NCBI RefSeq assembly: GCF_000417875.1
Contig: NW_006920876.1
Span: forward strand, 598,678-662,677
Length of the DNA stretch: 64,000 nt
Source of the DNA: Pseudozyma flocculosa PF-1
Lineage: Eukaryota > Basidiomycota > Ustilaginomycetes > Ustilaginales > Ustilaginaceae
Direction of reading: 5' to 3'
The notes under the pieces were generated by a model. That model was not told the origin of the DNA. It made no database searches and was given only the letters and a program-made list of their open reading frames with translations. The position numbers and the translations under genes were made by a program. The stretch's first letter is position 1. The number at the start of each line of letters is the position of its first letter. Shown piece by piece: positions 41,754 to 57,548 of the stretch.

Positions 41754-44700
41754 CTAATCGTGCTCGTCGACATCAAAGGGCGTGATCCACGTAGCGAGAT
41801 CCTCGTCGACGACGTTGCCATCCCCCTGCCTCTTGCCCAGCTTCCGCTTCATCTTGGCCTTGAGCCTGGCGCGCTTCCCCATGGCCTCGACCTGCTCGAT
41901 CCCTCCATCCTCGAGGGCGAGGTTGTTGAAGTCGACCTCGTCCTCGTGCTCCGAGTCCATGAGGTTGACGTGGCTCTCGTTGCCATTGCTGGGGCCCGGC
42001 TCAAAAGTCGACGAATGACCCTCTGCTGTTGTGGCCGTGGTGTCGACCGAAGGGCGGTGGAACATCGAGCTCGCAAATGACTGGTTGGTCTTGGTCGTCG
42101 TCAGGCTCAAACTCGACGCTGTGTTGTTGGTGCCGCCGCTGCCCGACCCAGACGCCAGCAGCGCGCCGGCACTCGCCAGCGCCTTCTGCTTCTTGATGAA
42201 GCCCTCGTCGTGACGCTCAATGGCGTGGTGCAGGTCGCGCGGGCTGTGACGCGCCGTGTGGCTTGAAGTGGGACAGGCAGCGCTGAAGGTGTGGGCGAGG
42301 TGCAGATGCTGGGCCAGCTTCACCATGGGGAGCGGGAGGCTCGGCGGCTGCCTCGGCAGGTAGATGAGCCTCCTGGCAGACCCGCGGCCGGCGTAGAAGG
42401 CATCCAGGCGCTTCGACTCGCTCTGCGCTGCCCTGTACGCTGCGCTCTGGTGAAAGGCGCGCGCGGCCGCCGGCGAGGGGACTAGCGACATGCAAATGGA
42501 CACGTGCGCCGGAGGCTTGTTGGGGCCCGTCCGTGGCATCAGACCCGTGTTCTGCGCGTATCGAGCATAATCGCCGACTCCGTAGCCCATCTCGGCCTTG
42601 GTCGGCGTGACGAACTCGATCTCGACCCGAAGGAAGCACTTGGCTCGCGATCGGTCGTGAGACGTCGCGGCCGAGGCGGCATCCGCCACCTCTTCCGGTC
42701 CAGCTTCGATCCTCGTGTTGCCGTACCATGCCAGAGCACGCAGCAGGCTCTTCCACGAGTGGGCGCGGACGACGAAATAGGGGCCGCGGGTTCCGACGAC
42801 GGCCGGCGATCGATTGCCTGCGCTGCCGGTGCCAACAGCGCGAGGTGCGGTCACGCTGGTGAGCTGCAGAGCGTTGGGGAAATAGTACTTGGCCGCCGTC
42901 TCGCCTTCGCCGGGCTCGTGAACCTTCTCTAGCTGTGTCGCAAACGGCTGCGATGCAAAACCGAAATCGACGCCAGCGATTGCTTTTTTGCCTCGAGAGG
43001 CCTGCGACTGCTGCTGAGGCGAAGGCGACGCGACGAGCGGCGCCGCTCCGGTCGAGGTGCGTTGTGGTGACGCGGGGGACTCATGCGCTGGTGAAGCCTC
43101 TAGAGCGGAGGCAACTATGCCGGCAGCTACAGAAGGGGTAGCAGTGCTGTCTGCCTGCTTCGGTGGTGGCTGTGGCGGCGTCGAGAGCGCTTCTCGTTCG
43201 TGCCGGTTGATTGAGACCGAGGAATGGCGTCGGTCTCGACCGCCTACGGGCAAACCGGTCATCCTGCTGAAATCCAACGCCGCTTCGACGGCGGGAGAGC
43301 TGACCCGACTGTTGGACGCCGTATGAGCTGGGCTAGGTCCGGCGAACGAATCCACTGGGCTCGGCGCCTCGTCTCGGAGATTTGGATCAAAGTCGTACGC
43401 TGAAGGACTCTGTAGGTAGCTCAGCTCCGTCCGGCAGGCTGTCGATGATGGAGTCGCGGATTGCGTCATCTTGTCGCTGATTCCCCGGCCGCTGGCACCA
43501 GGTTTATGTGCGAACGAGGTATCTGCGGCGGCAGCGGCTTCGTACGGCGGCGGTGCATCGAGCGGGATGATGCTGAAGGGAACCGGATCATCAGCATCCG
43601 CCGGCATGGCAGGTGACGTTGGAAGAGCGGGCGCGCCTGCTGTTGCGAGAGGCGCCTGGCCCGGGACGGGTGGCAAGGGACGCCTGATGGATGGGCGGGC
43701 ACGAGATGGCTCGGATGGGGCAGACTGAGAGGAGGCGGCGGCCTGCTGCTCCATCTTCTTGGCGAGATCGTAGGCCTCGTTGTGCCCGGTAAACCTCCAG
43801 AACTCCGCCTCGGAGTCTTCGAGATCGTCTTGCACGCCCTCGTTGGCCGCCATCCTCGAGGACCCTTCGCAGGTGGCGTCGCTCTCGCGTCGTCTCGACT
43901 GGTGCTCGAAGAAGGCGATGAGCGATCTCTCTTCGCTCTCACGTCGCCGCCATTCCTCCTCCTGCTGCCTCATGCTTTCGGCGATGGCGGCCCTTTCTGC
44001 TTCAAGCTCCTGCTCGAGCGCCTCTGCCCTCTTCCGCTCCTCTGCTTGAGACGCACGGAGAGCCACCTCGATCTGCATCTGGTCCTCGGCCGCCGCCTTT
44101 TCGCTCTCGCGCTGGGCCGCTTGCCGGCTTTCCTCCAGGATCCGAGCTTCCTCTTCGGCGCGCGCCTTAGAGAGGAGCTCGGCTTCTCGCTTGCTGTCCT
44201 CGACGGCCTTTTCGAGCATCGTCCGCTCCTCCTCAGCTCTTCTGCGGCGTGCGTCCTGCTCGCTAGCGCTGATGGCATAGAGATTCTCCATCTCAGAGGC
44301 CTCCCGTTGCTTCCTACGCTCCTCGTCCAGACGCGCCGACGCCATCGAGGCTGCCAGCGCCTCGTCCAGTTCGGCCCGACACCCAGGACAATCGTCGAAC
44401 TCATGCTCCTGCTGGATCGAGTTGGTCTGCGGCGATGTCGCGGACGTTGCGGACGACTGACGACCTGATCTGCCGATGGCCGACTCGCTCGCCGACGAAC
44501 CGGACCCGAAGCGCTGCGGAGGCATCGGCGACGGCGAGAGAGAGGCGGCATGTGCTGAGGGCGTCGTGGGTAGCGGGATGTTCTGCGCTCGTTCTGAGTG
44601 GGCGCTGAAGCCGGACGACTGTCGTCGGGAGCTTGCGTGGCGGCCGTAATCACCCTCGTGTGCCGCGCCAAAGGTGCCGCTCCACTGCGACGGCGACGAC

Positions 44701-45173
44701 GATGGTTGCAGGGACTCGTATGGATTCGGCAGCCGATCCCCCTGGGGTAACGCAGGGAGAGGCGACGAGACCATAGGCGCCGGAAAAGACAAAGAAGCTC
44801 TCTGCTGGAAGGGAGGAAGGCTTGGGTGATTCTGCTGAGCTTGCTGCTGCATGCCTGGGGCTTGCAGCTGATAGCCATTCTGTTGAGGGCGAGCGGGGAG
44901 GGTGGTGTGATGCGGCTGCTGGATAGCCGGCGGCGCAACGAATCGCTGCGGTCGAGAGCCCGAGCTCGGAGTCGGGTTCGGACCGAGCCAGGGACGAGAC
45001 GGTCCAGCCTGTATGGCGTGGGGAGGGGCGTGGCCGTTGAAGTTGGGCGTCAGCTGTGGCGAGTTCGGTGAAGGCTGACGGTGCGATTGCGGTGGTCGGG
45101 GCGGCGCGTGCTGGTACCACGTCGAGGTGCCATCATGGCCGTTCGGAGGTGCCGACGAGGACGTCGGCCTCAT
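41754..45173 (-). CDS. Large coiled-coil protein with tandem UIM-like motifs
   Basis: The conservative ATG at 45173 (MRPTSSSAPPNGHDGTSTW) gives 1139 aa in one exon. The first 250 residues are Pro/Gln/Ser-rich. A CPGC motif then introduces a charged helical block (about residues 255–430) with repeated ΦxxAxxxSxxE patterns resembling ubiquitin-interacting motifs: ELDEALAASMA, NLYAISASEQD, LEKAVEDSKRE, IEVALRASQAEE and AAIAESMRQQEEE. A Pro/Ser-rich spacer follows. A folded-looking region (about 800–1010) contains PYFVVRAHSWKSLLRALAWY, CFLRVEIEFVTPTKAEMGYG and DYARYAQNTGLMPRT. The frame stays open upstream to 45239 and beyond without an ATG. A better N-terminus (MPASASLSSTYTNPYSS, ATG 45327) lies one frame off, separated by a C7 run at about 45218–45225. 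The family is unknown; ubiquitin binding is inference. Confidence 0.7.
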   Translation of the reverse strand: MRPTSSSAPPNGHDGTSTWYQHAPPRPPQSHRQPSPNSPQLTPNFNGHAPPHAIQAGPSRPWLGPNPTPSSGSRPQRFVAPPAIQQPHHTTLPARPQQNGYQLQAPGMQQQAQQNHPSLPPFQQRASLSFPAPMVSSPLPALPQGDRLPNPYESLQPSSSPSQWSGTFGAAHEGDYGRHASSRRQSSGFSAHSERAQNIPLPTTPSAHAASLSPSPMPPQRFGSGSSASESAIGRSGRQSSATSATSPQTNSIQQEHEFDDCPGCRAELDEALAASMASARLDEERRKQREASEMENLYAISASEQDARRRRAEEERTMLEKAVEDSKREAELLSKARAEEEARILEESRQAAQRESEKAAAEDQMQIEVALRASQAEERKRAEALEQELEAERAAIAESMRQQEEEWRRRESEERSLIAFFEHQSRRRESDATCEGSSRMAANEGVQDDLEDSEAEFWRFTGHNEAYDLAKKMEQQAAASSQSAPSEPSRARPSIRRPLPPVPGQAPLATAGAPALPTSPAMPADADDPVPFSIIPLDAPPPYEAAAAADTSFAHKPGASGRGISDKMTQSATPSSTACRTELSYLQSPSAYDFDPNLRDEAPSPVDSFAGPSPAHTASNSRVSSPAVEAALDFSRMTGLPVGGRDRRHSSVSINRHEREALSTPPQPPPKQADSTATPSVAAGIVASALEASPAHESPASPQRTSTGAAPLVASPSPQQQSQASRGKKAIAGVDFGFASQPFATQLEKVHEPGEGETAAKYYFPNALQLTSVTAPRAVGTGSAGNRSPAVVGTRGPYFVVRAHSWKSLLRALAWYGNTRIEAGPEEVADAASAATSHDRSRAKCFLRVEIEFVTPTKAEMGYGVGDYARYAQNTGLMPRTGPNKPPAHVSICMSLVPSPAAARAFHQSAAYRAAQSESKRLDAFYAGRGSARRLIYLPRQPPSLPLPMVKLAQHLHLAHTFSAACPTSSHTARHSPRDLHHAIERHDEGFIKKQKALASAGALLASGSGSGGTNNTASSLSLTTTKTNQSFASSMFHRPSVDTTATTAEGHSSTFEPGPSNGNESHVNLMDSEHEDEVDFNNLALEDGGIEQVEAMGKRARLKAKMKRKLGKRQGDGNVVDEDLATWITPFDVDEHD

Positions 45174-46093
45174 CCTCAAGGCTGGCTTATATGATGGGTC
45201 GCTGAGCTGAGGACCACGGGGGGGTTGCGTGCGCCGCAAGCTTGGTGGGCGCAGACTTGCTTCGTGGGTCGAATAACGAACTGTAGGGGTTAGTGTAGGT
45301 CGATGACAGCGAGGCCGACGCCGGCATCTTTCGAAAGCCGGAAGTGCCGACGATGCTGGAGGGGAGTAGGTCGGGCCCGCTCGCCCGCCGCGTGACGCTG
45401 CTTTAGCTTCTTGAACAGGCCAAGGTTCGGGAAGGGCCGAGGTCGTGATTCAATCAGAAGACCAGCAGGCAGGGCTTGAGCTTCGTCTTCGGCTGTCTCC
45501 GAGACGGATAGGGCTCCGAGGCTTCCAGCGACGAGGTACAATCAAAGAGCAAGTTCCAGGTGGAGATCCGCGCTCGAGGCAAAGAAAAAAGATGCGGGAC
45601 GGATCCAGATAGAGACGACGTCGGAGCAAGAGGTGGAATGAGGGTCTGTATGGCTGGAGGACTCGGTCGGGAAATGAGGGCAGGGGATGGATGTGGTGAG
45701 AGGCCAAGGAGCAGGCAGGGGCCACCCGCAGCATGATAGCCTGCCTGGCTGCAGGTGCGCTGTTTCGGCACGGGCGGTCTCGGACCTTGACGCCGTACAG
45801 CCTCTCCCTCCACACCTGCTCCGCCGGCGCCCCGCTCCGCGGCTTCAAAGAGGCGCGTCCCTGCTGCTGTCCCCGCCTCGCTCTCTTTGGCCCAGCCAAG
45901 ACCCTGGCTTCGATCTGGCTGTGCCGCTCCGCCGAGACCGTAGCATCCTATCGGAAGCCCACTTTTCGGCCACTTTTGGTGTGTCGCCTGTTCGCAATTG
46001 CCCTATTCTGGTCCAATTGACTTGAGATTTGAAGCCTGAGCCAAAGCAGCCCTCCCAATCAGGAACAAGCTGTGCTGGAGTCAAGATACCAGT
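45174..46093 (-). promoter_or_regulatory. Upstream region of the UIM-like gene, possibly including its true first codons
   Basis: An ATG at 45327 on the minus strand opens a natural-looking stretch (MPASASLSSTYTNPYSSLFD) that runs into the downstream frame only if one base of a 7-C run is removed. Further upstream no gene is supported. The repeat island begins at 46094. Confidence 0.35.
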
Positions 46094-46594
46094 CATAGCT
46101 AGCAGCAAAGAGCACGTGGATTTTTGCCAAATGCCAGCCTGCAGTTGGGAGATTGGGCATCATCTACGCTAAAAAATGGCTGTAGGCCACCTATGGCCGG
46201 AAATTGGCGATCTCCTGTGCCAAATTGAGGCTGTAGGCAGCCCTACACCAAACATCAGCGATCTCCTGCACCAATATAAGGCCGTAGGGCCACTCACGGC
46301 CGTTTTCTGAGGGGCAGCTACTGCATTCTTGGCCGTAGGGCCCCCAACAGCCCTGGGCCGACCCTACCCTGCGCTATTTCTGGCCGCAGGCCACGAGAAA
46401 ATGGCCATCTCTGCTTACGTCAGCACAGGGGGCCCTGCGCATGCACGCTTGGCCCCTTGCCACCCGGCCCTTTGCAAAATCCATCTGCCTGCCCACCCGT
46501 CTCTCCTCCCCTCCTACCACCACCAACCGACGCCAGCTGCCACGACCTGCCAGCCAGCCCCTGGCCAAGCGCAGCCACCTTGCTGCTTGCATCT
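46094..46594 (-). repeat. Inverted, 5'-truncated copy of the CATAGCTAG repeat unit
   Basis: It starts with CATAGCTAGC and then matches, in reverse complement, the right-hand 450 bases of the full units (the GTGGATTTT segment, GGCCGTAGGG motifs, the CTGCTTACGTCAGC segment, TCCTACCACCACC). It shows clear drift from them. It runs directly into the full unit starting at 46595. Confidence 0.75.
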
Positions 46595-48124
46595 CATAGC
46601 TAGCGGCAGGGATTTAGCTACGGCCTCGGGAATCGGAGATCTGTTAGGCCCTTGGGGTCTTAGGATACCGCAGGCGGCCAAGGACGGTATAGGGCTTGCG
46701 CGGAGAGGTCAGGGATGAGGAGGAGTGGGATATCGATGCTGTACCAGTCTCCAGTAAGAAGAGGATATAGTACATTTGACAAGGAGACCATCAGAGGCCT
46801 CCGCAGGAGCCGGGGGACTACATACTAGCTCCCTTGAGCCCCTCCGGGGTCGAGGGGCTGGCTGCGGCAATTGCCGCTCGGCTCCGCCGCCCGCCAGCAC
46901 TTCCTCGGGACTCAGGCGCCCGCAGGGGCGTGTTGGGCAGCCGCCTAACAAGATCTCCTTTGCTACCCCAGGGCCGTACCTAGCCGGTCTACCACTTCGG
47001 CCTTTGGGCCGTAGGACTCCTACGCTCCCAGGGCCGTAGGACAGCGTCGCTCCCACACCGCAGGCATAGCATGCACCCACAGCCGTATCCTAGCTACAAT
47101 TCCATTGCAAAACTATGCTACCTACAAGGGCAGCACCAACGGCGCAGAGCAAGGTGGCAGCAGGGCGGCAGCAGAGCGGCAGCAGCGACAGCGGCAGAGC
47201 ATTGTCAGCAGCCAAGTAAGGCGGTGAGGGAGGAGCAGGCAAAAGAGAGACAGGAGCAAAGGAGTCAGCAACGGCGTGCAAGGGAGCGGGAGACGAGGAG
47301 CGGTGGTGGCAACTCACTTGTCACGACCAGGCTGTCAAGCGGAAGGCGGAAAGAAGGCTGTCAATGGTCAAAATCGACGGAGACTTTGGAGAGGCCTCTC
47401 TCCGACGTCTCCGACAATTGATGGCAGGGGCGGAAGTAGCAGCAAAGCGGAATCAGTGGCAAGGCGGCTGGGGCTGGCAGCGGCCCGGCTGGCGGCTGCG
47501 CTTGGCTGGCGGGCGGCTGGCGGGTGGCTGGCAGGGTCAGGCGGCTGAGCTGGGCTGGCTGAGCCGGGCAAGTGGTGGCTGGCTGGCTGACAGCTGGTGG
47601 CTGGCTTCTGGCTGGCGGGTGCTGGCGGGTGCTGGCACGGCCTTGCGGCTGGCCTGGGTTGGCGACTGGCGGCTAGCTGGCGGGTGGTGTCGGGTGGTGG
47701 TGGTAGGATGGCAGGAGAGATGGGTGGGCGGCGGATGGGTTTGGCAAAGTGCTGGGTGGCAAAGGGCCGGGTGGCAAAGGGGCCAGCGCGCGCGCAGGGC
47801 CTCCTGAGCTGACGTAAGCAGAAAGGGCCATATTCTGCGCAGAGTGGGGTTGGCCCAGGGCTGTGGGTGGCCCTACGGCCAAAAATGCCGTAGCTGCTCC
47901 CCAGAAAATGGCCACGGGTGGTTGTACGGCCGAAAAAGCCGTAGGAGATCGCCGCTTTCTGGCCGTAAGTAAACCTACGGCCCCAAAATACCGCAGAAGA
48001 TCGCCGATTTTGGCGGTAGGGCTGCCTATGGCCATTTTTTAGCGTAGGTGACCCCCGATCTCCCGATCACATGGCGTAGGGTGGCCTACGGCCAAAATCC
48101 ACCTGCCCTCTGACGCTAGCTATG
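46595..48124 (+). mobile_element. Repeat unit 1 (non-autonomous element-like), carrying a nested solo LTR
   Basis: It is bounded by CATAGCTAGC at the left and GCTAGCTATG at the right, a perfect 10-bp terminal inverted repeat. It is 1530 bp long, or about 1216 bp without the inserted LTR and its target duplication. Its right 900 bp are almost identical to unit 2 at a constant offset of 1756. It has many short GGCCGTAGG/CCTACGGCC motifs and a GGCTGGCGGG-rich core. The open frames inside are low-complexity (Trp/Gly/Ala) and resemble no transposase, so it is probably non-autonomous. No convincing target duplication is seen at its ends. Confidence 0.7.
46642..46950 (+). mobile_element. Solo LTR of an LTR retrotransposon
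   Basis: A 309-bp segment beginning TGTTAGGC and ending GCCTAACA (8-bp inverted ends, TG…CA). It is flanked on both sides by the 5-bp direct repeat AGATC (46637–46641 and 46951–46955). Unit 2 has no such segment at the equivalent place (GGAGATCGTTAATCCCC). This is the structure left by LTR–LTR recombination. No internal retroelement genes are present. Confidence 0.85.
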
Positions 48125-48642
48125 CCTGCCAGCCAGCCACCCAAGCCAGCCACCCAGCCAGCCGCCAGCTAAGCGCAGCTGCCAGCCAAGCGCAGCTGCC
48201 AGCTGCCAGCCGGCCCAGCCAGCCACCCAATGAGTTGCCAGCTGCCGCTGCTTCTGCCCTGCCGCTGTCAATCATCGGAAATGTTGGAGATGCTTTCTCA
48301 TAGAAAGCGTCAAAGGGCACCAGGATTTTGGCCGTACGCAAGCCTACAGCCTGAAATTGTGAAATCGGGGGTCATCTACGCTAAAAATGGCCATAGGGCC
48401 ACCTACGGCCATGAAAAATGGGGCTGTAGGGATACCTACGGCCATTTGCTGAGGGGCAGCTACGGCATTTTGGCCGTAGGGGGCCCTACGGCCATTTTCT
48501 GAGAGGCAGCCACGGCATTTTTGGCCGTAGGGCCCCCCACAACCTGGGCCGACCCTACCCTGCGCAGAAAATGGCCCTTTCTGCTTATGTCAGCTCAGGG
48601 GCCTGCTCGCGCGCGCGCAGGCCACCTGGCCCTTTGCCAAAT
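48125..48642 (-). repeat. Inverted, rearranged fragment of the same repeat family
   Basis: Between the two full units lies sequence matching the unit in reverse complement: CAGCCAGCC-rich core, the TGTCAATCATCGG segment, then GGGGGTCATCTACGCTAAAAA and several GGCCGTAGGG motifs. It ends where unit 2 starts. Parts of the unit are missing. Confidence 0.7.
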
Positions 48643-49879
48643 CATAGCTAGGGGCAGAGATTTTCCTACGATTTTGGAAATCGTAGACATTCTACAATAT
48701 GGCAGTGCCGTAGGAGATCGTTAATCCCCTACGGCACCCAGATGCCATAGGGCCACCTACAGCATTTTTGGCCGTAGGCATCCTACAGCCTGCTTACCGT
48801 AGGCCCTCCCTCGCACCCACAGCCGTATGTACTCTACCGGCATTGTATTGCAAAATCTAGTTACACTGATGTGCGGCAGCGCAGCGATGGCATTGGTGAG
48901 TGGCGGGGCAAGCATGCAGGAAGGCAGGCGGCAGCAGGCAACAGGCAACAGCGGCAGAGCATGTCGGAAGCAAAGAAAGGTAAGGGAGGAGCAGGCAAAA
49001 GAGAGACGGGAGCAAAGGAGTCAGCAACGGCGTGCAAGGGAGCGGGAGACGAGGAGCGGTGGTGGCAACTCACTTGTCACGACCGGGCTGTCAAGCGGAA
49101 GGCGGAAAGAAGGCTGTCAATGGTCAAAATCGACGGAGACTTTGGAGAGGCCTCTCTCCGACGTCTCCGACAATTGATGGCAGGGGCGGAAGTAGCAGCA
49201 AAGCGGAATCAGTGGCAAGGCGGCTGGGGCTGGCAGCGGCCCGGCTGGCGGCTGCGCTTGGCTGGCGGGCGGCTGGCGGGTGGCTGGCAGGGTCAGGCGG
49301 CTGAGCTGGGCTGGCTGAGCCGGGCAAGTGGTGGCTGGCTGGCTGACAGCTGGTGGCTGGCTTCTGGCTGGCGGGTGCTGGCGGGTGCTGGCACGGCCTT
49401 GCGGCTGGCCTGGGTTGGCGACTGGCGGCTAGCTGGCGGGTGGTGTCGGGTGGTGGTGGTAGGATGGCAGGAGAGATGGGTGGGCGGCGGATGGGTTTGG
49501 CAAAGTGCTGGGTGGCAAAGGGCCGGGTGGCAAAGGGGCCAGCGCGCGCGCAGGGCCTCCTGAGCTGACGTAAGCAGAAAGGGCCATATTCTGCGCAGAG
49601 TGGGGTTGGCCCAGGGCTGTGGGTGGCCCTACGGCCAAAAATGCCGTAGCTGCTCCCCAGAAAATGGCCACGGGTGGTTGTACGGCCGAAAAAGCCGTAG
49701 GAGATTGCCGCTTTCTGGCCGTAAGTAAACCTACGGCCCCAAAATACCGCAGAAGATCGCCGATTTTGGCCGTAGGGCTGCCTTCGGCCATTTTTAGCGT
49801 AGATGACCCCCGATTTCCTGATTTAAGGCCGTAGGTCAGCCTACAACCAAAATCCACCTGCCCTTTGACGCTAGCTATG
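48643..49879 (+). mobile_element. Repeat unit 2 (intact, 1237 bp)
   Basis: It starts CATAGCTAGG and ends GCTAGCTATG (9/10 inverted match), flanked by AAT on both sides, which could be a 3-bp target duplication. Positions 48981–49876 match 47225–48120 with few differences. It has no coding content beyond low-complexity frames. It starts with a TTTTCCTACGATTTTGG segment that reappears inverted at 50825–50850. Confidence 0.72.
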
Positions 49880-50865
49880 AATCCATCCGCCCGCCCGTCC
49901 CATCTCCTGCCCTCCTACCACCACCACCTGACGCCACCTGCCAGCCACCCACCCCTTCGGCCCTGCCATCCAGCTGCCAGCCGCCACCTGAGCCAGCCAC
50001 CAGCCAACCGCCCGGCGCAGTTGCCTGGCCCTGCCCCCTCAGGCCAGCAGCCGCCCGGCGCAGCCAACCGCCAGCCGCCAGCGAGGCCCAGTCAGCCGCC
50101 AGTCAAGCGCAGCCGCCCGGGCCGCCAGCCAGCTGCCCGGCCCAGCGAGCAGCCAGCCACCCGTCAGCCACCTGCCACCAGCCGCCTGAGCCGCCAGACA
50201 GCCGCCCAGGCCGCCAGCCAAGCGCAGCTGCCATCCAAGCGCAGCCGCCAGCCAAGCGCAGCCGCCAGTGAATCCGCTGCCAGCCCAGACGCCTTGCCAC
50301 TGATTCTGCTCTGCTGCTACCTTCCGCCCCTGCTGTCAATCGTCGGAGACTTCGCAGGAGGCCTCTCCAAAGTCTCCGATGATTTTGACCATTGACAGCC
50401 TTCTTTCCGCCTTCCGCTTGACAGCCTCGTTGCAACAAGTGAGTTGCCACCACCGCTCCTCTTCTGCCGCTCTCTTGCACGCCGTTGCTGACACCTTTGC
50501 TGCCCCTCTTCCTTTTGCCTGCTCCTCCCTCACCGCCTTTTCGCTGCTGACGCTCTACCACTGTTGCCTGCTGCCGCCCTGCCGCTCTGCCACCACCCTG
50601 CTGCTTGCTGCCGCCTGCCTTCCTGCCTGCTTGCCCCGCCACCAATGCCATCGCCACGCTGCCGCATATCAGTAATTAGATTTTGCAATACAATGCCTGT
50701 AGAACACATACGGCTGTGGGTGCAAAGGCAGGCCTACGGTAAGCAGGCCGTCGGACGCCTACAGCCAAAAGTGCCGTAGGGGATTAACGATCTCCTACGG
50801 CACTGCACTTTTGTAGATGATCTCCGATTCCCAAAATCGTAGGAAAATCTCTGCCCCTAGCTATG
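49880..50865 (-). repeat. Inverted repeat unit 3, truncated at its left (distal) end
   Basis: Read on the minus strand from 50865 it begins CATAGCTAGGGGCAGAG and follows unit 2 through the GCACCCACAGCCGTATG segment, the CATTGTATTGCAAAATCTA segment and the TGTCAATGGTCAAAATC segment. It diverges more in the GGCTGG-rich core. Together with unit 2 it forms a 2.2-kb inverted arrangement centred near 49880. Confidence 0.72.
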
Positions 50866-51085
50866 TCTCCGGCGTCTCCAATGATTGAGACCACTGACCG
50901 CCTTGCGTCCACTCTGCCTGCGTGCACAGCCCACCTTGCCACTGCCTGCTGGTCTGCTGTTGCTCTGGTGAGTTGACTGTTGCCGCTCTTATCCTTCTGC
51001 CTCTCTGCTGCGCACCATTGCTGACTCCTTTGCTCCTGTCTTTCTTTTGCTGCTCCTCCCTCACCGCCTTACTTGCTGCTGACAA
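50866..51085 (-). repeat. Diverged fragment of the repeat core
   Basis: In reverse complement it resembles the part of units 1 and 2 around 47205–47330 (AAGTAAGGCGGTGAGGGAGG, AGCAAAGGAGTCAGCAA). The similarity stops where the palindromic element begins. Confidence 0.5.
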
Positions 51086-51103
51086 TCATATTGTCAGCAG
51101 CAA

Positions 51104-51620
51104 AAGTGATTCCCAATTTTTCCTATTGTACAAGCTGTGCGATCCAGGATTTGAGAGTCATTATACAAGTGCAATCTGAAATCCTGGCCACTATGAGTGG
51201 ATTTCAGATTACAGGCAGGAGAAATTCGGGATCTCAGATCGCAGCTGATTGCACACCTGGTGCGCTTCTGAGGAATCGCACAAGCTGGCTGCAGCTGGAT
51301 TACAGATTGTTATACATGTGCAATTTTTTTTGACCAGATACTGTTTGACCCGATGACGGTGGAACCGGGCAGAGCGTGAGTGACCTCAGCCAGCAACTGC
51401 ATAGCTAGCAGCAGGATCTGGTCAAAAAAAAATGTATAACAATCTGGAATCCAGCTGCAGCCAGCTTGTGCGATTCCTCAGAAGCGCGCCCTGAATTTTT
51501 ACTGCCTGCGATCTGAAATTTACATACAGTGATCAGGATTTCAGATCGCACTTGTATAACGACTTTCAAATCCTGAATTGCACAGCCTGTGCGATGGGAA
51601 AAATCGGGAGTTCCGTTTCA
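51104..51620. mobile_element. Foldback / long imperfect palindrome element
   Basis: The left half (51104–51339) is matched by the right half (51416–51620) in reverse complement over nearly its whole length. The inner arms 51261–51339 and 51416–51488 are the most similar (CTGAGGAATCGCACAAGC; TTGTTATACAT; TGACCAGAT). The outer arms share GCTGTGCGAT, CAGGATTTGA, TTATACAAGTGC and ATCTGAAATCCTG. The spacer is about 76 bp and contains another CATAGCTAGC. AT content is higher than the surroundings. It has no coding potential. This matches a foldback or MITE-like transposon; the class is inference. Confidence 0.75.
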
Positions 51621-51896: not shown

Positions 51897-53441
51897 CTAT
51901 GCCTGGGCGGCCTGAACCTTGTCGTTGTTGGTGGGGTGGTTGGCCTCGAAGATGTCGTAGGCCGGCACGACGAGGTCGGACTGGTCGCAGACCTTCTTGG
52001 GGGTCTGGGCGAGGGCGCCCTTCTCGAGGGTCTCGATCTCGTCGGCGGAGAGCTCGATGAGCTTGATGTTGTTCTCGATCCTCTTGGGGGTGACTGACTT
52101 GGGGAGCGGGTTGCAGCCGCGAGCGACCTGCCAGCTGATCAGCACGTTGGCGCCCTCGACGCCGTGCTTCTTGGCGATGCTGTCAACGACCTCGAGCGAG
52201 GCCTGGCTGGCGCCCGTCGAGCCGAGCGGCGAGTAGGCCTGGGGCAGGATGTCCTGCTTCTTGAGCCAGGCGACGAGCTCGGGCTGCGGAAAGGTGAACG
52301 AGAGCTCGACCTGGTTGACGACGGGCTTGATCTTGCACTCCTTGAGCAGCTCCTTGAGCCTGCGGATCGAGAAGTTCGAGACACCAATCGACTTGACCAG
52401 GCCCTCCTCGACCAGCTTCTCCATCTCCCTCCACACACCGACAAAGTTCTCGGTCGTCTCGACGTCCAGCAGGTGCTTGCCGGTGGCAGGGTCCTTCTTC
52501 GAGTTGCGCGGAAGCTGCCCAGCAGGAACATCTTCCGGAACAAAGGCAATGTTCCAGTGCATCAAGTAGAGGTCGAGGTACTTGACGTTGAGCTTCTCGA
52601 GGGTGTCGAGGCACGCCTGACGGACGCTGAGGGATGGGAGAGGGGCGCGGAGGTGCGGGCGAGGCGGAAGTCGGCGATGGATGGGTCAGTCGTGGGCCAA
52701 AGACGGCGGAAGAGGAGGGGTGGAACCGTCGGTGGGTGGGAGTCCGACTGCGAATACGCACTGGTTGTGGTGGAACTCGAAGAGCTTGCTGGTGATCCAG
52801 ATGTCCTCGCGCTTGACACCGCTGAGCTTGATGCCTTCTCCGACCTCGTCCTCGTTCCTATAAAGGCAGGGGCGGGCGACGTGGCGATGGGAGCGACGGA
52901 GCGCGAGTGAGCAAACAGTCGCGGTATGAGGCGACTGCGGGTACGGCGGGCCAAGCAGGCGGAAAGGGGGAGCGAGAGAGGCGAGGCACTACTCACTGGT
53001 AGCCCCAAGCGCAGTCGATGTGCTTGTAGCCGTTCTTGAGGGCGTGGCAGACGGCATCCCTGACCTCTCCCTTGCTGATGTAGACGGGGATTGGGACGAG
53101 CCCAGAAGCAGAAGGGGGTTCGGGAAAGGCTTTGGCGATGGTCAGCATGAGAGAGCGCCGCGGTGCTGCAGGAGTCGGGCAAGAGCAAGGTATGCAACCG
53201 CGGCCGAGGCACACCGATACCCACGGGGACTGCCAGGTTCCCAGACCGACGGAGGGAATCGAGAGACCGTTGTTGAGCTTAAACTCGGTAGCGACCCTGC
53301 AAGACGGAACGTTTTGAAGCACCCGGTCAGCATCGACGTTTCGGTTGGCATCGGCGTCAGCGAGGTCCATCGTGACGAGGAGGGAGGGGGGCCGAAAACG
53401 GAAGAGGCAGCAGGCACCGCACGAAGGCCGGTCACGCACAT
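51897..53441 (-). CDS. Aldo-keto reductase (five exons; start codon split by an intron)
   Basis: An NAD(P)H-dependent reductase of the AKR superfamily, close in wording to fungal glycerol dehydrogenase/aldehyde reductase members. Exon 1 supplies only AT of the ATG (53441–53440), and exon 2 begins with its G (53296). The join gives MVATEFKLNNGLSIPSVGLGTWQ. Exons: 53441–53440, 53296–53225, 53074–52997, 52857–52762, 52626–51897; 325 aa. Catalytic residues are visible: Asp and Tyr in HIDCAWGYQNEDE, Lys in WITSKLF, His in LYLMHWN. GVSNFSIRRLKELL and NQVELSFTFPQPELV follow. The cofactor loop contains NPLPKSVTPKRIENN. Exons 2–5 are firm; the split start is inferred from the AAAAT|GTGCGT donor, phase, and the natural N-terminus. 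Substrate is unknown. Confidence 0.88.
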
Positions 53442-55320
53442 TTTGGATAATTTGGTGATGAGCGGTAGAAAGAGGTGGTTGTGGTGTACTGCGCAGGAAG
53501 CGGATAAGGTGAGGGCTGGATAGGGGATCGGCCAGGATCGAAGGCGAGGAGAGGGCGACTTTATAGGTAGCCGGCCTCGGCCTGGCCTCGTCTGGCGCTT
53601 GCGGGTGGGCCGCCTTTCTTCTGGAGATTGCCAGGTGTTGAACGAGGGGCGAGGCGGGGCCCGGCAGGAACGGAGGTCAAGGCAAGGCGACGGCGGGCGG
53701 AGCGGGGCGGGGCGGGGCGAAGGGCGAAGGGCGATGGAGCGGAGCGGGGAGCGAGGAGCGAGGATACCGGTGGGCGAGCGAGGAGGGGCCTCACGCTCGG
53801 CTTCGTCGACGTGCAGCGCGCCACCGCACCCGGCGGCGAGCGTTTGGGGGGCGCGCACGCACCAGCCCACTGAGGCGAGAAATCCGCCTGGCTGGCTCTG
53901 AGCATCAGAGTAGTCGTATCGCCAACGACGAGATTGCCGGCCAACAAAGCTGGGCAGTAGGCTCCCAACCCCAAGGCGGTGTAGGTACTCACTACTCTGT
54001 ATGTACTCACAGTACTCTGCCGTACAGGCACACAACAGGCCAGGGTGCAGCCCGCTCCTCTCTGGCTCGATCTTCTTGCCAAAGGGCGAACGCCCTAGCC
54101 TGCTTGCTTACGGCGCTGCCAGGCTGGGCTTGACCGATCTGCCTGCTCGCGCCAGCTCGCCAGGCCGGCCCCGGTCATCCCGCCAAAAGGCCCTCTGGTG
54201 CTGGACCCTCGCCCGCCCTCGACCCGCCGCTACGTTTGCTAGGATTGCCGACAAAGACGAGTGTGTTTGCTCGCGCCACCTTGAGAGTCTGGTGGAACCC
54301 TTGGCAGCGCCAACCCTCGACGGACCTCTCCCTCTTCGGCCATCTCGTTGACAATAAGAGAGATGCTTTGTAAGTACCTAACAGCTCGGCCACCACCTCT
54401 TCATCCGTCCGGCCGCCTGGTGATGGGTATGTACATACATCCGAACCGAGTAGTCTTGATTCGTCTGCGGCAACGAGGGTGTGCAACTCGCCGGTGGGCC
54501 AGGCAGGTGGCTGGCAAGCTGGTGGTGCTGGCTTGCTCGCCGCAAGCCTGAGCCTGCTGGCCTCGGGGGGCTCGTCTACCGCCTGCAGGCGAAGGCGAAG
54601 GCCGCCTCAACGGCGAGTTCGCCGGGGGCCCAACCCTGCTGCGACCCTACTTCGCCGGTCGCGGCCTGGCCGGGCGCGCAGGCCACGCGGGCCGCCAGAG
54701 TGAGGCACTAATCGGCAAGCCAGCTGCAGCCAAAAAGCAGCTCGAATGGAGAGGCAGGAGTGGTTCCCCCGGGGGGTTTTCCCCGAAAGCCGCCAGCCTA
54801 CCTGCTTCGGCCCCGCGCCTCTCGGCAATCTTGTCGTCACCCCGAAGCGCGAGGGCGGAAAGATGCCCGAGCACCCGGCCTGGACAGGAAAGAGCCCTGC
54901 GCGCATTCTTACACACTACTGCAAGAGAAATGGTTGGCCAGGCCAAGCTCTCCTCCGCCACCACCAACACCACTTCGACGCCGTCACCTTGATCTCCTGG
55001 TCGCATCGAGGCAGGCGCGTCCCGACTCGAACCTCGCCAAGCAATTCTCTGACTGGCAAGCCTGCCCGACGAGACCACTTCGCACGACCTTGGGGTAGCA
55101 CTCACGCACGCCGCGGCCGCAGGCTTTGGAGGCAGATGGTTCAGGATCACGACGATTCGGCGCTAGCCATACGGCGATCGAGCTCAGAGTGATGCACAGG
55201 ACAGGTCAGGTAAGGTCGTCGGGGTCGGCACTTGCGGGGGTTGAGCGCATTCAATCATCAGACGACCCTGCTCCCCGCGCTGCCTTTGGCCATGGCGGTG
55301 GAGCTCTGCGCAAATCCAGC
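53442..55320 (+). other. Intergenic region, 1.9 kb
   Basis: No gene is supported. GGGGC-rich repeats lie around 53695–53725, and TGTATGTACTCACAGTACTC-type short direct repeats around 53985–54015. It presumably contains the AKR promoter and the 3' flank of hexokinase. Confidence 0.4.
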
Positions 55321-57548
55321 TCAGACGTGCGCGTGGATGCCGGCCTCCTTCCTGGCCTTGGTCATGGCTGCGTCGGACACAATCAAACGCAGGAAGCGGC
55401 AAGTCGAGGTGCAACAACACAGGAAACGTCAGCGGCCGACCAGTGGATTGCGCATCCGCCGCGCTCTCGGCGAAACGGCCGCACTTACCCGCAATGATGG
55501 CCGAACCGACGCCCGAGCCATCCTCGGCCTGGTAGGTGCGGATCTTCTTGCCCTTTTCGCCGAAAATGTCTTCGAGCGCCTCGTGAAGACGATCGGGGAA
55601 TCCGGGGTACTTGGAGTAAAGACTGCCATCCGCTCCGACGCCGCAGCCCTGCTCGAGGTAGCCCATCTTTGTCACGAGGGCGGCGATGCCACAGCTGCTC
55701 AGCCGGGCGGCCCGCGTGCCGATCAGCCTGGCCAGCTTGCGGAAAAAGTGTCGCTCCTCGAGCGTCGTGTCCAGGCCAAAGAAGTGGGTGAAGAGGCCGG
55801 TGACGGTGAGCAGCTCGTCGGTCGGGTCGCTCTCAATCAGCGAGAGGAAGGCCGTGTCGAACGCGTACGGCTTCTCGATCTTGTACGTATTCTGGCCGAG
55901 GAAGAGGTCGCCCTCGTCGCTCAGCTCGATGAGCACCAGCCTGAACAGCTCGCCGAGGTAGAGGCCAGCGATCATCTTCTCGTACGTCTGCTCGTGCGGC
56001 TTGTTCGAGTGCAGGTCGATGTGCTCGTCGTACTTGGTCCGGATCTCGGCCATGTGCTCGTGGGTAAAAGAGTCAAAGGCGCCGTACTCGCAGTTGATGG
56101 CCATGTCCTGGTCGCCCGGCAGGCCGAGGTCGTTGATCTTGGGAATGTCCCTGATGTGCTCCATGTAGGCGGCGTTGCAGCCGGTGCCAAAGATGCAGGC
56201 GATGCGCGTGTCCTTGTTGACGTAGTTGGACGCGATCAGCGTGCCCGTCGTGTCATTGATGAGCGACGTCATCTTGATTGGCACGCCGTACTTCTCGAGC
56301 GATGCGCGAAACATGGCGGCGCAGTCGCGACCCTCGGTGTTGGGGTTGCCGAAGCCCTTGGTCCATCGAATCAGCTTGCCGTGGTCGATGCGATCCTGAG
56401 ACATGGGGTAGCTGAAGGTGAAGCCGAGCGCGATCTCCTCTTCGAGGATGACCTCGCCGTTGGCATCGCCAAAGTGGTCCTTGACAAACGTGTCGAGGCA
56501 CTCGGCGCAGAAGTCAAAGAGCTCCTGACCCTCGATCTGCTTCTGCTCCTCTGTCAGGCGGAACTTGGTCTGGGTAATCTCAAACTTGCCCTGTCCCTTG
56601 AGCACGACGTGGCAGACACGCAGGTTGGTGCCACCGAGGTCCAGGGCAAGATACGATCCGACCTCTTCTCCCGTAGGCCAGCCAAAGACAAAGGCCGGAA
56701 GCATCGGCTGCCTCGCACGGTGGTGGGGGCGCGATGCGCAAAGGCGGCTGAGCCAGACGTCAGCGGAAGGATCGGTGGAACGGCGATGCAGGGGCGGCGA
56801 GCAGCCTTACTTCCGCTCGACGTTCGTCGGCCGACGCTCACCACGGTCTGATCGGGCTTCTTGAGGCCCTCTTCGAGCACGCCGACAAAGCGGTCCGTGA
56901 TCATGCGCAGCCTCTGCGGAGTGATGGAGAAGATCTTCTCGTACTTCTCGTAGAGCTTCTTCAGGTCCTCCTCTCGGGCGTGAGGAGTCTTGCCGCCATC
57001 GTGGGTCCTCGTGTGCCACGATGCAATCTTCGGAAGCACAGGGCGGTGGAAAGGGTCGGCAAGGGATATCAGCGGGGAAGGCCAGTTGGAAAGGCGCAAG
57101 ACTGCGGTTGGTGGCTCCGATCTGGATGATTTCCGAAGCGGCTGCGTTGACGGCCTCCATGTTCGTTGCAGGCAGTACCGGCGACAAACTGGAACGCAGC
57201 GATGCTGTATCGCCTGCAGGACCTCGGGACCGGCTGAGGCCTTCCTCACCGCGACAAGGCCAGGGCCATCGGAACCGGTCCGTGCGCCTGGACTTGCAAG
57301 CCTCGCTCACGCCGACGGAGTCTCTTTGGTCGAGACACGGCCTCAAAGGGGATATCTGCCGCACAGCAGCCAGAGAGCCGGCCACACATCCGGAAGCACT
57401 CGAGTCGCTCTGCTCGAGACGGAGACGGCAGCTGACGACTCACATGCGTGTCGAGCTTCTCTGTGCCGGAGCCACGTCTCCTACTGGCGAGCGAGGTCGA
57501 GCCGCGCCTAGGCTTGTCCTCCTGCGCCTGGGGCTGCTGCGCAACCAT
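55321..57548 (-). CDS. Hexokinase (four exons proposed)
   Basis: Phosphorylates glucose, fructose or mannose at C6 with ATP. Core motifs: PMLPAFVFGWPTGEE, YLALDLGGTNLRVCHV (phosphate 1), the FTFSYPMSQ sugar-binding region, LIRWTKGF, NDTTGTLIASNYV, then GTGCNAAYMEH and INCEYGAFD, and near the end ADGSLYSKYPGF and DGSGVGSAIIA|AMTKARKEAG. Exons: 56842–57027 (EEDLKKLYEKYEKIFSITP…KKPDQTV), 56707–55489, 55367–55321, joined by introns of 134 and 121 nt. The 5' exon is less sure. An ATG at 57548 opens MVAQQPQAQEDKPRRGSTSL and ends at a GTGAGT donor (57444, phase 0), fitting an AAG acceptor at 57028. That gives 518 aa with an unusually long (416-nt) first intron. An alternative is an AT|G split start at the same donor. 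Confidence 0.88.

What the first reader, a model, noticed from the sequence alone, without database searches (positions are those of the whole stretch)
46094..50865. Cluster of a CATAGCTAG-bounded non-coding repeat family
Two full units (46595–48124 and 48643–49879), about 1.22–1.24 kb without the LTR, plus at least three inverted or truncated copies (46094–46594, 48125–48642, 49880–50865), abut one another, each junction marked by CATAGCTAG or its complement. They lack any transposase-like frame and differ in age. This looks like an undescribed non-autonomous mobile family with 10-bp termini, building an island by nested or repeated insertion.
Basis: partly seen in the sequence, partly recalled or inferred. 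Interest (0 to 1): 0.75.

Follow-up and report, generated by a model that had tools for sequence, protein, structure and literature searches.

The report
Jumping genes confined to presumed centromeres
In a smut-related yeast, a family of cut-and-paste jumping genes and its short non-coding followers pile into one another at one spot on most assembled chromosome pieces, probably the centromere, which is an unusual home for this kind of mobile DNA.

Summary
The window lies in Pseudozyma (Anthracocystis) flocculosa PF-1. CATAGCTAG marks the ends of transposons inserted inside one another. Insertions make a 3-bp target duplication, confirmed by empty-site relatives. Several families share these ends, from a 267-bp MITE to 1.2-2 kb units. 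An autonomous partner exists: a 19.7-kb element on C2 with the same ends and CGT/CGT flanks lies inside a 1.4-kb unit and carries a Tnp2 (PF02992) transposase in an open 1042-aa frame. The closest kind is CACTA/En-Spm, but the ends read CATAG.

The larger result is distribution. Of 337 family matches (five searches, two capped, some places counted more than once), 336 fall in one cluster per contig, on 25 of 33 contigs, in about 0.95% of the genome; a solo LTR searched the same way has 2 of 15 copies in clusters. The clusters measured are CpG-depleted, and four lie at contig ends. I read the clusters as centromeres colonised by a CACTA-like DNA transposon. Transposon identity is shown; centromere identity is inferred (no CENP-A data; 8 contigs lack a cluster).

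The parts
46094..46594 (-). oldest element of the stack, first piece: right end CATAGCTAGCAGCAAAGAGCACGTGG
   Evidence: (C8:644771-645250, minus)
46595..48124 (+). unit 1, full length with both CATAGCTAG ends; left end of family-d type, body of the window (family-b) type; flanks TCT/CCT (one mismatch)
46642..46950 (.). solo LTR (TG...CA) inside unit 1, flanked by AGATC/AGATC; a dispersed family (15 matches, 13 outside the clusters)
48125..48298 (-). oldest element, second piece (after unit 1)
   Evidence: read from the nesting
48299..48642 (-). unit 3 (inverted), first half: right end mutated to CATAGAAAGC; duplication TCT at 48296-48298
48643..49879 (+). unit 2, youngest insertion, 1237 bp, both ends intact, duplication AAT (48640-48642 / 49880-49882); CCGTAG/CTACGG words only at 66-155 and 987-1187 of the unit
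49880..50865 (-). unit 3 (inverted), second half ending CTAGCTATG; duplication TCT at 50866-50868
50866..51089 (-). oldest element, third piece
   Evidence: C8:649673-649742, minus; boundary read from sequence
51096..51343 (+). 267-bp-family MITE, 89% identical, left end decayed
   Evidence: C8:649773-650020
51400..51618 (-). 267-bp-family MITE, 76% identical, end CATAGCTAGC at 51400
   Evidence: C8:650077-650295

Best explanation
The window island is one of 25 clusters of a CACTA-like (Tnp2-transposase) cut-and-paste DNA transposon and its non-autonomous derivatives. A roughly 20-kb autonomous element encodes the transposase. The transposase acts on the shared CATAGCTAGC ends and the subterminal CCTACGG/CCGTAGG repeats of non-coding relatives (1.2-2 kb units, 267-bp MITEs) and moves them in trans, making a 3-bp target duplication. 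SHOWN: shared ends, 3-bp duplications, nested insertions with empty-site relatives, a transposase-bearing copy inserted inside a unit, conserved catalytic-type residues, and confinement of the matches found to one locus per contig. INFERRED: transposase binding to the repeats and trans-mobilisation; that the locus is the centromere; and that confinement comes at least partly from targeting of centromeric chromatin or of resident copies rather than only from selective loss elsewhere.
For: Confinement: 336 of 337 matches (115+39+111+42+30; some places counted by more than one search) lie in one cluster per contig, on 25 of 33 contigs, about 218 kb = 0.95% of the genome; the single outlier is a 3-mismatch 20-mer. 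In the three uncapped searches alone: 39 of 39, 41 of 42 and 30 of 30. Control LTR: 2 of 15 in clusters. Target duplication: MITEs 8 of 14 exact at 3 bp against 21 of 182 for mismatched flanks, 0 of 14 at 4 bp. Of 16 elements with rejoined flanks 13 had a match across the junction; with 3 bp removed the best match is gapless there in 10 of 13, with 0, 1, 2, 4, 5, 6 or 7 bp in 0 or 1. Autonomous copy: C2:526723-546437, CGT/CGT, inside a unit with ACT/ACT. Transposase: PF02992 E 7.3e-15; D372, D475, C495, C498, D567 and H570 invariant and E786 at least 90% in 13 aligned proteins. Of four PF02992 hits in the genome, two lie inside clusters and one (C33) within 5 kb of one. Cluster CpG o/e is 0.53-0.81 in 16 stretches on 15 contigs, against 1.04 for the rest of the window. 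Four clusters are at contig ends (C11, C22, C29, C33).
Against: No CENP-A, Hi-C, methylation or expression data. 8 of 33 contigs have no match; C12 (846,226 bp) and C16 show no exact CATAGCTAGC in the listed part. Three clusters rest on very little: C22 one 20-mer with 2 mismatches, C11 and C19 two matches each. Searches scored only 40 of 47 and 40 of 67 candidate places, so copies elsewhere could be missed. Of the first 100 of 147 exact 10-mers, 5 lie outside the clusters. A fourth, weak PF02992 match (below cut-off) is outside, at C8:232571. Telomere repeats appear on one contig only, so contigs are not shown to be whole chromosomes. CpG level is normal in 10 of 12 flanks next to clusters, so depletion may follow the elements rather than a centromeric domain; the autonomous copies are not depleted. 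The end core is CATAG, not CACTA. N runs interrupt the C2 and C13 autonomous copies.
Confidence: 0.78

Rival explanations
1. Retention, not targeting: the elements insert anywhere, but copies outside the centromere are lost to selection or recombination.
For: Centromere-confined LTRs of Cryptococcus (TCN3) do insert into a reporter gene under selection (passage of PMC12810828). The genome is compact (23 Mb).
Against: A solo-LTR family survives outside the clusters in 13 of 15 matches, so short repeats are tolerated in the arms, yet among the scored matches no family piece longer than a 20-mer was outside.
Confidence: 0.4
2. The clusters are one-per-chromosome heterochromatin islands that are not centromeres.
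For: No kinetochore data; 8 contigs lack a cluster; CpG depletion does not extend into most flanks.
Against: No other one-per-chromosome internal locus is known to me (recalled). Ustilago centromeres are described as large regional, with transposons (passages of PMC7025860, and PMC7763443).
Confidence: 0.15
3. Self-nesting alone: the transposase prefers to insert into resident copies or nearby sites, so founder clusters grow without any link to centromeres.
For: Many insertions lie inside other members (20 of 27 tested junctions have at least one uninterrupted relative).
Against: Founders would have to sit at exactly one place on each of 25 contigs. The sequence searched for empty sites was mostly cluster sequence, so nesting is over-counted.
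Confidence: 0.15
4. The repeat is a satellite or protein-binding motif array, not a mobile element.
For: The CATAGCTAGC ends are short and partly palindromic, and recur close together.
Against: 3-bp duplications, empty sites, varied families and a transposase-bearing copy.
Confidence: 0.02

Closest known systems
CACTA (En/Spm) DNA transposons, Tnp2 / Transposase_21
   Same: Tnp2 transposase with D-D-E and D(2)H type residues, 3-bp duplication, subterminal short direct and inverted repeats, large transposase-bearing copy with non-coding derivatives. CACTA features as given in PMC8978399 (passages).
   Different: TIR core CATAGCTAGC instead of CACTA; the best non-Pseudozyma proteins found are 25-33% identical (capped candidate list); confined to one locus per contig. 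A bean CACTA family is depleted at centromeres (passage of PMC4938662).
TRC elements of animals and fungi (SmTRC1 group)
   Same: Transposase_21 with an L/V/I-D-X-L/M-H motif (here VDVMH); TIR core departs from CACTA (CCC) (passages of PMC1636069).
   Different: 2-bp duplications and CCC ends in the animal elements described there; 3-bp and CATAG here.
CNIRT6, CACTA element of Cryptococcus neoformans
   Same: Basidiomycete CACTA-type transposon.
   Different: CACTG ends; DNA transposons there are spread over the arms while LTR elements hold the centromeres (passages of PMC12810828), the reverse of this genome.
Centromeric LTR retrotransposons of Cryptococcus (TCN3)
   Same: A transposon family restricted to centromeres (passage of PMC12810828).
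   Different: Class I; here a class II cut-and-paste element.

Membership tests
CACTA (En/Spm) superfamily | Transposase_21 (Tnp2) transposase | tested here: met
   PF02992 over cut-off at three places, two inside clusters and one (C33) close to one; E 7.3e-15 for the C2 frame
CACTA (En/Spm) superfamily | DDE catalytic residues | tested here: met
   D372 and D475 invariant, E786 at least 90% in 13 aligned proteins; their assignment as the triad is my reading
CACTA (En/Spm) superfamily | 3-bp target site duplication | tested here: met
CACTA (En/Spm) superfamily | terminal inverted repeats beginning CACTA/CACTG | tested here: not met
   ends read CATAGCTAGC; filed therefore as CACTA-like (Tnp2 group), not CACTA in the strict sense
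CACTA (En/Spm) superfamily | subterminal short direct and inverted repeats | tested here: met
   20 words of the CTACGG/CCGTAG kind (four spellings) in the last 577 bp of the C2 element; in unit 2 only in its two subterminal parts. The other end of the C2 element is an N run
CACTA (En/Spm) superfamily | second reading frame (tnpA-like) | tested here: inconclusive
   of 9 other long frames scanned none matched Pfam except a Prp8 fragment
MITE / non-autonomous derivative | short, non-coding, shares termini and duplication length with an autonomous element | tested here: met
   267-bp family, 39 matches; same CATAGCTAGC ends and 3-bp duplication. With the C2 copy it shares only the terminal core; longer end identity is seen for the window family (94 bp at 87%)
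Centromere | one locus per chromosome | tested here: inconclusive
   one cluster on 25 of 33 contigs, none on 8; contigs not shown to be chromosomes
Centromere | CENP-A / kinetochore binding | not testable with these tools
   no ChIP data
Centromere | gene-poor, repeat-filled, modified chromatin | tested here: inconclusive
   CpG o/e 0.53-0.81; CpG C>T excess 5.3-fold in 14 MITEs against 1.4-fold in 11 LTRs outside clusters; gene content examined mainly in the window; no methylation data

The most novel reading that the evidence does not exclude
A CACTA-like transposase has evolved, or been recruited, to insert into centromeric chromatin, so that a class II element rather than an LTR retrotransposon builds and renews the centromeres of a basidiomycete, with its MITEs and units as the bulk of centromeric DNA.
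Probability: 0.35. Interest if true: 0.82.

Novelty: new variant of a known kind. Interest (0 to 1): 0.62.

Why it matters
It gives a sequence-based candidate map of the centromeres of P. flocculosa, and a nearly complete system (transposase-bearing copy, several non-autonomous families, empty sites) in which targeting and retention at centromeres can be told apart. In the one fungal comparison whose passages I read (Cryptococcus), LTR elements hold the centromeres and DNA transposons the arms; here the class II element is the confined one. Nested units with exact 3-bp duplications also give a relative time order of insertions at a locus.

Tried and rejected
Plavaka (PF18759): 0 matches, but the control genomes rang nowhere, so absence is not shown. 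Telomere pattern, to test whether contigs are chromosomes: one match only, no use. PIF/Harbinger was considered from memory because of 3-bp duplications, but the duplications are not TWA and the transposase is Tnp2. A satellite array was rejected by the duplications and empty sites. A TET/JBP-like reading of a frame in the C1 cluster (E 0.06, below cut-off) was dropped: the homologue search found only a protein of the same strain. A fourth, weak PF02992 match at C8:232571 (below cut-off) has no paired family ends in the 9.6 kb held around it, one exact CATAGCTAGC at C8:240369-240378 apart. Flanking hexokinase homologues gave no route to known Ustilago centromeres. Yadav et al. 2018, the paper on Ustilago centromeres, is not held and is known here only through passages of other papers. 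Literature searches that brought up no description of this family: (listings only; one search was spoiled by an ambiguous term). The library holds open-licence papers only. Of eleven papers I saw passages only.

Samples: unit 3 was entered one base off (48298), one search uses 48299. The 27 elements and the 16 were chosen mostly because their flanks match, so those counts are not a random sample; any one gapless match counted, the best match. In one search, 18 of the 39 MITE matches were tried, 4 lacked held flanks, 14 were counted. One search aligned 13 of 34 proteins. The LTR comparison used 11 of the 13 copies outside clusters.
Full report
WHAT WAS CHECKED. The window is C8:598678-662677 of a 23.05-Mb, 33-contig genome. 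The C2 transposase frame is identical, over the 84% covered, to PFL1_00837 of Pseudozyma flocculosa PF-1, on a contig of exactly the length of C2, which names the organism. CATAGCTAG is present 7 times in the window against 0.11 expected. The genome holds 147 exact CATAGCTAGC against 46 for the reversed control.

ANATOMY OF THE WINDOW ISLAND. The island is a stack of insertions. The oldest element, inverted, survives as 46094-46594, 48125-48298 and about 50866-51089 (my reading of the nesting). Unit 1 (46595-48124, flanks TCT/CCT) interrupts it and itself carries a 309-bp solo LTR (AGATC/AGATC). Unit 3, inverted (48299-48642 plus 49880-50865, TCT/TCT, one end mutated to CATAGAAAGC), interrupts it again. 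Unit 2 (48643-49879, AAT/AAT) sits inside unit 3. Two MITE copies follow, to about 51618. The three island frames that I scanned have no Pfam match. The right-hand neighbour is an aldo/keto reductase frame at 51897-52565, then hexokinase at 55184-56704; the left one is a 1161-aa frame without Pfam match at 41754-45239.

MOBILITY. Pairing of ends (up to one mismatch) with equal 3-bp flanks in the sequence then held gave 42 pairs from 215 ends; some pairs are redundant. They fall into several families that share the terminal core: a 266-268-bp MITE; the window family (1.2-1.5 kb); a family with ends continuing AGCAGAGTCAACC / AGCAGGGTCGGGCC (1.5-2 kb); and one with GGCAGGGATTTAGCTACGG / GTCAAAGGTACCTAC (1.4-1.9 kb). 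For the MITE, 8 of 14 copies have an exact 3-bp duplication, against 21 of 182 mismatched flank pairs and 0 of 14 at 4 bp. Rejoined flanks find at least one uninterrupted relative in 20 of 27 elements tried. Of 16 elements, 13 had a match across the junction: with 3 bp removed the best match is gapless there in 10 of 13, with any other length from 0 to 7 in 0 or 1 of 13. The target duplication is therefore 3 bp.

AUTONOMOUS PARTNER. PF02992 (Tnp2) has four matches in the genome: C2:530571 and C13:401006 inside clusters, C33:20280 about 4.5 kb from one, and a weak one below cut-off at C8:232571 outside. The C2 copy runs from C2:526723 (right end, CATAGCTAGCGTCAAAGGGC) to C2:546437 (left end, CATAGCTAGGGGCAAGAATTTTCC), 19.7 kb including two N runs (assembly gaps or withheld), flanked by CGT/CGT. 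It lies inside a 1.4-kb window-family unit whose own flanks are ACT/ACT, and its rejoined flanks match uninterrupted units elsewhere. Its left 94 bp are 87% identical to the window unit. The frame is open for 1042 aa from stop to stop. D372, D475, C495/C498 and D567/H570 are invariant and E786 nearly so in 13 aligned proteins. A sister copy on C13 is 92.9-96.1% identical in three pieces of about 11.8 kb together, over a 14-kb span. It has the same kind of left terminus at C13:418143: the first 120 bases shown are nearly alike, though an ungapped count over 577 bases gives only 242. Its other end was not found; an N run lies there. On C33 a diverged transposase (about 70% in nucleotides) lies upstream of an end of a second family at C33:24899; the left end is not held, so that they form one element is inferred. 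The nearest non-Pseudozyma proteins are 25-33% identical, among 7994 scored candidates.

DISTRIBUTION. Five genome searches (three DNA queries, two extended end patterns) gave 337 matches, some places counted more than once; 336 lie in one cluster per contig, on 25 of 33 contigs, spanning about 218 kb or 0.95% of the genome. The outlier is a 20-mer with 3 mismatches. Two of the searches were capped (searches scored 40 of 47 and 40 of 67 candidates); the uncapped ones give 39 of 39, 41 of 42 and 30 of 30. Of the first 100 exact 10-mers listed, 5 lie outside the clusters. The clusters of C22 (one match), C11 and C19 (two each) are thin. The solo LTR from unit 1, searched in the same way, has 15 matches of which 2 are in clusters, so dispersed repeats are found by this search. 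The clusters on C11 (last base), C22 (first 1.2 kb), C29 (first 10 kb) and C33 (last bases) are at contig ends, and several others contain N runs, as expected where assemblies break, though withheld stretches also read N. 21 internal plus 4 terminal clusters would fit 23 chromosomes if the four ends pair up; U. maydis has 23 (recalled). Against this, 8 contigs have no match, and C12 and C16 show no exact motif.

CHROMATIN SIGNATURE. The 16 cluster stretches measured (15 contigs) have CpG o/e 0.53-0.81 and TpG+CpA excess (1.19-1.44); the rest of the window has 1.04 and 1.06. In the window, 14 of 126 evaluated 1-kb steps fall under 0.8, and 11 of these are the consecutive steps over the island. 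C>T change at CpG is 15.1% against 2.8% elsewhere in 14 MITEs (5.3-fold), but 5.8% against 4.0% (1.4-fold) in 11 LTR copies outside clusters. This suggests long-standing CpG methylation of the units. The autonomous copies are not depleted (C2 and C13 pieces 1.05-1.16, C33 0.98), which suggests recent arrival or escape. Ten of 12 flanks are at 0.9 or more; both C4 flanks are low. The genome has DNA-methylase domains on C24 and C23 and an Argonaute frame at C29:16.6 kb. A review reports shorter centromeres and fewer transposons in RNAi-deficient U. maydis than in U. hordei (passage of PMC7763443).

INTERPRETATION. That these are mobile, mutually nested, 3-bp-duplicating elements of the Tnp2 group with a transposase-bearing partner is shown. 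That the loci are centromeres is the best reading of one-per-contig confinement, contig breaks and CpG loss, but has no direct proof. Whether confinement is by targeting or by retention is open. The survival of a dispersed LTR family in the arms favours a targeting component; the TCN3 case in Cryptococcus (centromere-confined in the genome, yet inserting into a reporter gene under selection) warns against assuming it.

NOVELTY. By membership rules it is not a CACTA element in the strict sense, because the terminal core was tested and is not CACTA. It works like one and shares its transposase, duplication length and subterminal repeats. I therefore call it a new variant of a known kind. Ten literature searches (listed under tried and rejected) brought up no description of it; the library holds open-licence papers only.

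Noticed in passing
L056:3066-4805 (C2:541066-542805), inside the 19.7-kb element: The autonomous element carries a Prp8 RRM_4 domain (PF10598, E 1.1e-40); most of this stretch (to C2:542323) is also in the C13 sister copy, so it looks like a captured host gene fragment.
   Followed up: partly
window 46595-48124: Unit 1 is a chimera: left end of one family, 96% identical to unit 2 from position 285 onward.
   Followed up: no
C9:750506-750537: Two tandem copies of the 16-bp word CATAGCTAGCAGCAGG directly before a MITE; similar runs of 80-bp MITE left ends on C13:427287-427446. Possibly footprints of aborted transposition.
   Followed up: no
C33:15738-19050 vs C2:532234-535546: Two diverged transposase regions (about 70% identical in the gene) share a 3.3-kb stretch at 93%, suggesting recombination or conversion between elements of different clusters.
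   Followed up: no
C29:16630-17553: An Argonaute (Piwi) frame lies about 7 kb from the C29 cluster.
   Followed up: no
C1:933257-934723: 489-aa frame in the C1 cluster with a sub-threshold Tet_JBP match (E 0.06); the only homologue found is PFL1_00333 of the same strain.
   Followed up: partly
window 51897-56704: Aldo/keto reductase next to hexokinase; a Ustilago bromivora protein record carries both domains, so the pair seems conserved beside this cluster.
   Followed up: no
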